Positions 19,711 to 21,599 of a stretch of 22,944 nt of DNA are shown here, piece by piece (within the stretch, counting starts at the first letter, position 1; each line of letters opens with the position of its first letter). Location of the stretch: positions 1-22,944 of IMG/VR virus record IMGVR_UViG_3300028925_003694, one strand, 5' to 3'. The notes beneath the pieces were generated by a model. That model worked only from the letters and a program-made list of their open reading frames with translations, had not been told where the DNA came from and did not search any database. The translations under genes were made by a program, and so were the position numbers. Source of the stretch: a virus.

Positions 19711-19736
19711 GAAAGCGCTTAGTCGCTTCCTTTTTT
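19711..19736 (+). terminator. Intrinsic terminator with CTTAGT loop
   Basis: GAAAGCG, loop CTTAGT, CGCTTCC, then six T, 7 bases after the membrane-protein stop codon. The stem has one A-C mismatch. Its T-run is shared with the next promoter-like block. Confidence 0.7.
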
Positions 19737-19768: not shown

Positions 19769-20158
19769 ATGAAAAAAGAAACTTACGAAATCACTACAGA
19801 ATATCTTAATGATTTAAAAAAACTACTAGACTCTAAGTCTGGAAAAGTAACAAAATACCAGTTAGCTCATGCATCATTTAGAAAGAGATGTGCAGACTGG
19901 ATAATAACAGATGTAGATAATATGACTATCACGTACCTATCTGGTACACAAAGAACATTACCTACATATAATGAACTCATGAAAAGAGTTAAGATGTCTA
20001 ATGATGACTACAATCCTAAGAGAAGAAAGTATATCGCTAGGTATTGGAAAGTAATAAATGCTTTCAATAAGCATAGAGCAAGATTTAAAAATAAAAGAAA
20101 CACAATAGCTAATAGCCTTAGTCCTCAACAGATTAGAGCATTAGCTTCACAAATATAA
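19769..20158 (+). CDS. Basic early protein, unrecognised
   Basis: 129 residues, strongly basic. The N-terminal half is mixed (YEITTEYLNDLKKLLDSKSG, ADWIITDVDNMTITYLSGTQ) and the C-terminal half is helical and Arg/Lys-rich (YNPKRRKYIARYWKVINAFN, HRARFKNKRNTIANSL), so DNA or RNA binding is likely. NDDYNP repeats the DYNP of the 108-residue protein; the two genes share a 14-base identical run there (19401-19414 and 20004-20017). The structured non-coding stretch starts 3 bases after its stop codon. No family recognised. Confidence 0.55.
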   Translation: MKKETYEITTEYLNDLKKLLDSKSGKVTKYQLAHASFRKRCADWIITDVDNMTITYLSGTQRTLPTYNELMKRVKMSNDDYNPKRRKYIARYWKVINAFNKHRARFKNKRNTIANSLSPQQIRALASQI

Positions 20159-20161
20159 AAT

Positions 20162-20329
20162 AAAGAATAGTGAATACAAGTCTACACACTTGTCCTGGTA
20201 TGTCTGAAATAGGAAAGGCAACATAAAGTTAATGTGTATGTAGTTGTTGGATGCTCCCATTGCAGTAATGGATGGAGCGACACTAAAGTCATATAAAGAA
20301 AATAAATAAGGTTTGACTAACTATTCTTT
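20162..20329 (+). ncRNA. Structured small RNA candidate (element 4)
   Basis: AAAGAATAGT (20162-20171) pairs perfectly over 10 bp with ACTATTCTTT (20320-20329). Inside: ACAAGT/ACTTGT (20176-20193, loop CTACAC); CAACATA with TATG-ta-GTTG (20219-20225/20237-20246); and GCTCC-CATT/AATG-gat-GGAGC (20253-20278). No ORF. It begins right after the 129-residue gene, so it may be released from that mRNA or have a promoter inside the gene's end. The 3' T-run is short (TTTT). The 8-mer GATGCTCC also occurs in element 3. Confidence 0.5.
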
Positions 20330-20341
20330 TATATAATAGGT
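20320..20341 (+). promoter_or_regulatory. Promoter-like block between RNA elements 4 and 5
   Basis: ACTATTCTTTTATATAATAGG overlaps the 3' closing strand of element 4 and ends at the 5' stem of element 5. It is a looser match to the cassette block and contains TATAATAGGT, also present within the 12-mers at 17300 and 17370. Confidence 0.35.
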
Positions 20342-20342
20342 T

Positions 20343-20401
20343 GGGAGTAGGAGCGTGTGGCCACGGAAAGATAACTAAAATTTGCTGTTATTACTACTCC
20401 C
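20343..20401 (+). ncRNA. Structured small RNA or long terminator hairpin (element 5)
   Basis: GGGAGTAG (20343-20350) pairs with CTACTCCC (20394-20401), followed by TTCCTTTT. Inside are CGTG-TGGC-CACG (20353-20364) and GATAAC/GTTATT (20370-20375/20387-20392, one G-U pair). The 59-base length and branched interior are unlike the simple terminators nearby. Bases 20377-20390 are complementary to 20485-20497 in element 6. Confidence 0.45.
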
Positions 20402-20415
20402 TTCCTTTTCATAAA

Positions 20416-20534
20416 AGAGATGAGTGAATATATAAATAGTAGCCAAACAATGCCATGTGCGGTACTATTAAATAGTTAACGCGCTAACAGCAATTTTGCT
20501 GGTTGACGGTCCGATTCTGCTCATCTCTTTTTTT
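20416..20534 (+). ncRNA. Structured small RNA candidate with terminator tail (element 6)
   Basis: AGAGATGAG (20416-20424) pairs with CTCATCTCT (20520-20528), extendable by three A-T pairs, then seven T. Inside: AATAGTA-g-CC with GGTACTATT (about 20435-20469), and CAGCA/TGCTG around loop ATTT (20488-20501). GTTAAC (20475-20480) can pair either with GTTGAC (20502-20507) or partly with TAAC (20485-20488), two exclusive folds. It is followed at once by the leader of the 51-residue gene, so either a free RNA or a regulated leader terminator is possible. Confidence 0.5.
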
Positions 20535-20554
20535 ACTAACTAAAAACTAAAACT

Positions 20555-20710
20555 ATGGAAACAAACGAATTAACTGCAAAAGAAAAAGAAATGCTTTTAG
20601 GATTAGTAACACAAGCAATAGAGGAAATTGGATTAGGAGAAATGGAGTATCTAAAACCTTTACAAAAGATAGAGCAAAAGCTAATGAATATACTAGAAAT
20701 AAATTATTAA
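20555..20710 (+). CDS. Small helical protein (51 residues)
   Basis: Read by eye: METNELTAKEKEMLLGLVTQ, then AIEEIGLGEMEYLKPLQKIE, ending LMNILEINY. It is predicted as two amphipathic helices, acidic overall. The leader ACTAACTAAAAACTAAAACT is A-rich as in other genes here. It follows the terminator-like end of RNA element 6 and is the first gene of the more tightly packed right-hand set. Function unknown. Confidence 0.5.
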   Translation: METNELTAKEKEMLLGLVTQAIEEIGLGEMEYLKPLQKIEQKLMNILEINY

Positions 20711-20978: not shown

Positions 20979-21599
20979 ATGCCAAATTGGTGCTGGAACA
21001 ACCTGACTGTAACAGGAGACGAAAAACAACTACAAGACTTTGTAGAAAAATCAATGAGTACATATGATGATGGTACTGAAAGATTTATATTTAACGGAAC
21101 ACATCCTATGCCTGAAGATCTAAACATAACTAAAGGCACACAAACACAAGATGAAAAAGAACAAGCTATTCTTAATAAAGCTAAATATGGTTATACTGAT
21201 TGGTATGACTGGCATCTTGGCGAATGGGGAACTAAATGGGACGCTTGTGAGTCTTATATAAATAATAATGATATACATTACTTTAGTGTATCATTTGACA
21301 CAGCTTGGGCTCCTCCTATAAATTGGCTAATAAATATAGCTATGGATTATCCAGATTTAGAATTTGAATTAGAATATGAAGAACCAGGCATGTGCTTTGG
21401 TGGAACATTTACAATACAAGGAGATGATGGGCAAGACGCTCAATGGGATTTAGACGCAGCTTCTGAATGCTGTAACGCAGAGGTATCATTTGATGATGAC
21501 TACGAAGCTAAATGCCTTGTGTGTGGAGAAGAAACAGAAACAATAAGTATTAACGTGGCTGATATTAAGCCTGCTAAAATTAAAGCGAATGAAAATTAA
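20979..21599 (+). CDS. DUF1281/Api92-like ferredoxin-fold protein with C-terminal zinc ribbon
   Basis: 206 residues. The start MPNWCWNNLTVTGDEKQLQD, the PMPEDLN motif (43-49), YGYTDWYDWHLGEWGTKWDA (70-89) and SFDTAWAPPINWL (105-117) are hallmarks of the YubB/DUF1281 ferredoxin-like family found in phages and plasmids. Its molecular role is not established. The core ends with EPGMCFGGTFTIQGDDG. After that comes CysCys164-165 and Cys179/Cys182 (ECCNAEVSFDDDYEAKCLVC), a likely zinc ribbon not usual in the shorter family members. Its end overlaps the next small gene by 11 bases. The family call is strong; function remains open. Confidence 0.82.
   Translation: MPNWCWNNLTVTGDEKQLQDFVEKSMSTYDDGTERFIFNGTHPMPEDLNITKGTQTQDEKEQAILNKAKYGYTDWYDWHLGEWGTKWDACESYINNNDIHYFSVSFDTAWAPPINWLINIAMDYPDLEFELEYEEPGMCFGGTFTIQGDDGQDAQWDLDAASECCNAEVSFDDDYEAKCLVCGEETETISINVADIKPAKIKANEN

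What the first reader, a model, noticed from the sequence alone, without database searches (positions are those of the whole stretch)
20159..20554. Three closed, branched RNA folds laid end to end in one 396-base non-coding gap
Between the 129- and 51-residue genes there is no credible ORF, yet three consecutive segments are each sealed by a perfect 8-10 bp terminal stem (20162-20171/20320-20329; 20343-20350/20394-20401; 20416-20424/20520-20528), each containing at least two internal hairpins and each followed by a T-rich tract. A random AT-rich spacer would not be expected to give nested long stems of mixed composition three times in a row. A phage-encoded small-RNA array, or one processed polycistronic RNA, is the simplest reading. 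I do not recognise the folds.
Basis: partly seen in the sequence, partly recalled or inferred. Interest (0 to 1): 0.7.

Follow-up and report, generated by a model that had tools for sequence, protein, structure and literature searches.

The report
Swappable small-RNA modules in marine phages
A 396-base non-coding gap in an uncultivated phage, related to viruses of Bacteroidota, holds three stem-closed RNA-like modules, of which one clearly and a second probably belong to conserved structured-RNA families found in no RNA catalogue searched; related phages carry such modules in different combinations and orders at the same site.

Summary
In detail: three disjoint stems of 10, 8 and 12 bp lie at the stated places (the third is longer than stated), a result reached by 4 of 2000 shuffles. 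Support is unequal. Module 2 (20343-20401) is a conserved RNA: 19 distinct rows, six of eight closing-stem pairs with changes on both sides, 98.9% of cells paired against 38-80% when partners are slid. Module 3 (20413-20531) is probably real (three relatives, stem kept through double changes). Module 1 (20162-20329) has no relative except a near-identical contig and unremarkable folding energy; it is unproven.

No Rfam 15 family matches. The same site in related phages holds different sets of closed modules; modules 2 and 3 occur in both orders. Module 2 was found once in each of 8 records, beside different genes, about 10 nt after a stop codon.

Best reading: a site of exchangeable, co-transcribed RNA modules with structured cores, probably trans-acting accessory RNAs; the target, and transcription itself, are untested. 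Rivals are cis-acting 3'-end modules and plain terminators. The 'small-RNA array' idea is largely supported; processing of one polycistronic RNA cannot be judged.

The parts
20162..20329 (+). Module 1 (E1): 168-nt segment closed by the 10-bp stem 20162-20171/20320-20329; unproven as an RNA
   Evidence: Stem present; energy z -0.6; pairing probability depends on context; only a near-identical contig carries it
20343..20401 (+). Module 2 (E2): conserved structured RNA; closing stem 20343-20350/20394-20401, extended by AGG/CCT 20338-20340/20404-20406 across a UU/UU internal loop
   Evidence: Alignments A2/A6, covariance model R1: 20 matches at E<=2.5e-20, 19 distinct rows; double changes in 6 of 8 closing pairs
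20357..20364 (+). 8-nt palindrome GUGGCCAC in E2, kept self-complementary in relatives as GUGAUCAC, GAGUACUC, GAGAUCUC, AAGAUCUU (GUGGCCAU, with one G-U, in three)
   Evidence: Rows of A6
20370..20392 (+). Internal hairpin of E2, GAUAAC 20370-20375 with GUUAUU 20387-20392
   Evidence: Nearly invariant; outer pair is G-C in 11 rows and G-U in 8, which marks the + strand as the RNA
20352..20386 (+). Possible pseudoknot in E2: AGC 20352-20354 with GCU 20384-20386
   Evidence: One of three pairs changes on both sides (A-U 14 rows, U-G 5 rows, probably one event); the others are invariant
20413..20531 (+). Module 3 (E3): probable structured RNA; closing stem 20413-20424/20520-20531; hairpin CAGCAA 20488-20493/UUGCUG 20496-20501
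   Evidence: Relatives L089, L090, L152; A3/R3; closing stem 13/13 pairs kept, 3 with double changes
19769..20158 (+). Upstream 129-aa gene, no family or fold match; marks the site in related phages
20555..20710 (+). Downstream 51-aa gene, no family match

Best explanation
The gap is one version of a variable site that carries exchangeable, co-oriented structured-RNA modules. Shown by comparison: module 2, and with fewer sequences module 3, keep their closing stem by compensating changes while a core inside stays nearly constant, so selection acts on an RNA. Shown: the modules occur at other sites and in changed order, module 2 sits close behind the stop codon of whatever gene is upstream, and it was found once per genome. 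Inferred: each module is transcribed from the + strand with the upstream gene, ends at or is protected by its closing stem plus U tract, and persists as a roughly 60-120-nt RNA whose core binds a specific host or phage factor in trans. Inferred with less confidence: such modules are accessory factors, possibly decoys against host systems. Module 1 may be a further, unsampled module or an ordinary spacer.
For: Covariation of E2: 98.9% of cells paired, 9 of 20 pairs with double changes against a shuffled mean of 4.8, slid controls 38-80% paired. G-U in place of G-C on the + strand. Different module sets after the same 129-aa gene; E2 precedes E3 in the window but E3 precedes E2 in L106 and L110; E3 also occurs elsewhere in L152. 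E2 occurs behind several different genes. One match to E2 in each of 8 of 15 records, none in 7. Of three contigs scanned, closed modules of known families were confined to about 54-61 kb of the 65.7-kb record G004 and to one gap of G001. Two E2 rows (L048, L126) have no U tract directly after the stem, so termination is not the shared feature. The phage has an ordinary short terminator-like hairpin at 19713-19728.
Against: No expression data. E2 lies next to stop codons (median 11 nt) and mostly has a U-rich tail, which equally suits a cis role at mRNA 3' ends. No target, partner protein or host counterpart was found; 24-base patterns of the E2 and B cores gave no exact hit in 84,980 bacterial and archaeal genomes, which gives no support to simple sequence mimicry. 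Copy number rests on contigs of unknown completeness. E1 lacks comparative support. Many of the relatives were found by fixed patterns on their cores, which makes the cores look more constant than they may be.
Confidence: 0.5

Rival explanations
1. Cis-acting 3'-end or intercistronic modules: stem plus U tract ends or partly ends the upstream transcript and protects its 3' end, and the core binds a factor that tunes termination or stability of neighbouring genes.
For: Position about 10 nt behind stop codons, next start often within about 30 nt when no further module intervenes, U-rich tails in most, on the strand of the upstream gene; little room for a sigma-type promoter between modules.
Against: Found once per genome and in one region; neighbours change while the core does not; some members lack a U tract.
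Confidence: 0.35
2. Plain intrinsic terminators with oversized loops, swapped as recombination joints between phages.
For: Purine-rich 5' arm, pyrimidine-rich 3' arm and U tract; modular shuffling at one site.
Against: A plain terminator needs no constant 43-nt core or kept palindrome; E2 has 28 invariant columns in 16 sequences. The same phage has a short terminator-like hairpin.
Confidence: 0.1
3. Chance stems in an AT-rich spacer.
For: Applies at most to module 1: energy z -0.6, no informative homologue, context-dependent pairing.
Against: For modules 2 and 3: covariation and relatives in other contexts.
Confidence: 0.03

Closest known systems
pseudo-ToxI of phage phiTE (PMC3475682)
   Different: ToxI and pseudo-ToxI are near-identical tandem 36-nt repeats; here there are no direct or tandem repeats of that kind and the modules differ from each other; no toxin partner known
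RNA anti-CRISPRs, Racr (PMC10651486)
   Same: Small non-coding phage RNAs in intergenic places, solitary units, in one case in a bicistronic RNA with an anti-CRISPR gene
   Different: Racrs resemble host CRISPR repeats; the E2 and B cores had no exact match in 84,980 genomes; SRUFinder was not run
Mobile regulatory cassettes of T4-type phages (Arbiol et al. 2010, known here only by title as cited in PMC4177764)
   Same: Small cassettes said by the title to mediate modular shuffling between phage genomes
   Different: The paper was not held; from memory those are promoter plus stem-loop cassettes. Here constant inner cores and closing stems that covary, no promoter identified between modules
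Phage tRNA arrays
   Same: Compact series of closed, branched RNAs with short AU-rich linkers
   Different: ARAGORN finds no tRNA or tmRNA in the window or in 25 related loci

Membership tests
Any Rfam 15 family | Score at or above the gathering threshold | tested here: not met
   No match in the window or in 20 related loci; best sub-threshold matches to the gap have E 0.76 or more
Type III RNA antitoxin (ToxI-like) | Tandem near-identical repeats of about 36 nt | tested here: not met
   No direct repeat of 14 nt or more; only a 7-nt, 2-copy tandem repeat
Type III RNA antitoxin (ToxI-like) | H-type pseudoknot | tested here: inconclusive
   Three-pair pseudoknot possible in E2, one pair covarying
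RNA anti-CRISPR (solitary CRISPR repeat) | Similarity to a host CRISPR repeat | not tested
   No repeat library at hand; exact-core scans of 84,980 genomes gave none, a narrower test
tRNA or tmRNA | Detected by ARAGORN | tested here: not met
Cis-regulatory leader (riboswitch type) | Constant downstream gene | tested here: not met
   E2 precedes many different genes
Structured RNA under selection (E2) | Compensatory changes above shuffled and slid controls | tested here: met
Structured RNA under selection (E3) | Compensatory changes above shuffled and slid controls | tested here: met
   Five pairs with double changes, shuffled mean 2.1, 3 of 500 shuffles as high; only 4 rows, 3 of them close
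Structured RNA under selection (E1) | Compensatory changes in homologues | not testable with these tools
   No diverged homologue found

The most novel reading that the evidence does not exclude
Marine phages of this group keep a dedicated, rapidly reshuffled locus of mutually different small structured RNAs that act in trans on host factors, a pool of RNA accessory factors comparable in role to arrays of small anti-defence protein genes; module 2 may act as a dimer through its palindrome.
Probability: 0.3. Interest if true: 0.85.

Novelty: new variant of a known kind. Interest (0 to 1): 0.62.

Why it matters
Structured RNAs of phages are mostly known as single cases. A site where several unrelated, conserved RNA modules are exchanged between phages gives a concrete set of sequences, with boundaries and predicted structures, for testing whether phages carry accessory RNAs the way they carry accessory proteins. 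The families (module 2, module 3, and the B family found in sister arrays and in other phages) could be entered in RNA catalogues at once.

Tried and rejected
Rfam at gathering and permissive thresholds: nothing. tRNA/tmRNA: none. Coding gap: rejected, no ORF of 40 aa or more. Homologues of E1 by BLAST, nhmmer and a 17-base pattern: only the near-identical contig, otherwise unrelated, apparently coding sequence. Search of named phages with E2: none; with B: only weak short matches. Host genomes: no exact match to the two core patterns. Upstream 129-aa protein as a possible RNA-binding partner: fold predicted (mean pLDDT 74.8) but no structural or family match. L149, a pattern hit without the closed structure, was dropped as a chance match. 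An automatic list of closed stems in all loci was mostly coding or antisense sequence and was used only to pick out repeated families. One match of the B model, G004:60767-60887, is the E2 of that genome: a weak cross-match, E 0.0014, that together with several weak E2-model matches on B elements suggests a shared hairpin but was not tested further. A hypothesis that closing stems mimic Shine-Dalgarno or anti-Shine-Dalgarno sequence was considered from single cases (AGAAAGGAGG) and dropped, since other members have different stems.

Full report
What was claimed. The stems are where stated; the third is 12 bp, not 9. Three disjoint perfect stems of 8 bp or more with loops of this size were reached by 4 of 2000 dinucleotide-preserving shuffles of the gap. 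Folding energies relative to shuffles are z -3.0 and -4.1 for modules 2 and 3 but -0.6 for module 1. The gap has no ORF of 40 aa or more.

Where it comes from. The record is a 22,944-base virus contig. Its terminase matches crAss-like and Flavobacterium, Cellulophaga and Bacteroides phages, the best at about 30% identity. That the source is marine is my inference, not shown by a tool. A terminase scan, a scan with an alignment of the 129-aa protein and DNA patterns gave related loci.

Module 2 (E2). A 21-base pattern from the core was found in 20 viral stretches, a looser one in 26. A covariance model found 20 matches at E 2.5e-20 or better, 19 distinct rows, with a wide gap to the next match at E 0.015 in the larger search. 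On the model-fitted alignment 98.9% of cells pair, 9 of 20 pairs have changes on both sides (shuffled mean 4.8, none of 500 as high), and sliding the partners lowers pairing to 38-80%. The alignment was fitted to the structure, so it leans towards it; independent support comes from comparing each sequence's own flanks with flanks swapped between sequences: 9.35 against 6.57 in mean best-stem score, 3% of swaps reaching the median of the true pairs. The closing stem changes freely (GGGAGUAG, GAGAGUAG, GGGGGUAG, AAAAGGGCAG, UAGGAAGAAG and others, each with its complement), while the core stays nearly constant. G-U in place of G-C on the + strand (for example 8 of 19 rows at the outer pair of the inner hairpin) points to RNA of that strand rather than a DNA cruciform. 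An 8-nt palindrome stays self-complementary through its central two bases in five variants, which suits pairing between two molecules but rests on about three independent changes. A short pseudoknot is possible.

Module 3 (E3). Relatives in L089, L090 and L152; the model found no others among 63 loci except L106, which is the same contig as L089. With four rows, the 13-pair closing stem is never broken and three of its pairs have double changes, and a second helix has two. Three rows are close to each other, so in effect this is two lineages: good but limited evidence.

Module 1 (E1). Its only relative is contig 3300028925_002652, 99.7% identical to the window in the region compared and therefore uninformative. 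Pairing of its closing stem depends on the flanks included. It should be called unproven.

The site. In relatives the gap after the 129-aa gene holds different module sets: for example a single element in L104 and L111, and about five in L110, with E2, E3, a family B (pattern AATAAYNNAGCGGTTATACTTTGT, 49 viral stretches) and other closed elements that I distinguished only by eye. In the window E2 precedes E3; in L106 and L110 E3 comes first. E2 also lies behind other genes (L086, L092, L095, L148, L151) and E3 elsewhere in L152. E2 has a median distance of 11 nt to the upstream stop codon, B of 8 nt (distances from fixed offsets, so approximate). Each of 8 records has exactly one E2 match; B has one clear match in most records that have it. 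A scan of three whole contigs counted 5, 2 and 2 closed elements in G004, G005 and G001 against 1.3, 2.3 and 0.7 in shuffled gaps. Those of known families were clustered at 54-61 kb in G004 and in one gap of G001; G005 is at its control level and shows no array, and its known E2 was missed because an ORF call covered it. The scan is therefore a lower bound.

Reading. Neighbour independence, single copy, confinement to one region and a constant core argue for RNAs with a function of their own, more likely in trans; position behind stop codons and U-rich tails fit a cis 3'-end role nearly as well. No datum here shows transcription. The known phage RNAs that act in trans, pseudo-ToxI (PMC3475682) and Racr (PMC10651486), show that such a role is possible, not that it holds here; ToxI-type repeats are absent.

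Novelty. No Rfam 15 family matches the window or 20 related loci. A text search of open papers found no description, but it covers only part of the literature. I rate this a new variant of a known kind: phage structured RNAs, here several families exchanged at one site.

Noticed in passing
L161:9844-9967 (-) and about 43 further loci (alignment A4; pattern scan): Family B, a second conserved stem-closed element with core AAUAAYNNAGCGGUUAUACUUUGU, in sister arrays and behind different genes in other uncultivated phages (some upstream proteins end in an acidic tail such as DDDLPF); closing stems differ widely but stay complementary in most. No exact core match in 84,980 genomes.
   Followed up: partly
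G004:C1:60767-60887 and weak matches in L161, L163, L164, L179, L195: Models of E2 and B weakly recognise each other's elements, which may mean a shared hairpin AUAAC-UNA...GC[G/U]-GUUAU.
   Followed up: partly
L107 gap, L148:3795-3860 (-), L076:2973-3053 (-): Other array elements look, by eye, like H-type pseudoknots sharing a GATAAAG strand; not tested.
   Followed up: no
window 20338-20342 and 20402-20406; gaps in L107, L113, L115: Several different elements share a base AGG-UU ... UU-CCU with a possible tandem U-U internal loop before a U tract.
   Followed up: no
window 19713-19728: Ordinary short terminator-like hairpin followed by a T tract, in the gap before the 129-aa gene.
   Followed up: no
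window 20979-21599: 206-aa protein matching Pfam DUF1281_C, ferredoxin-like domain of Api92-like proteins (E 2.6e-12); a protein with the same start (MPNWCWN) is often the first gene after the arrays in relatives.
   Followed up: no
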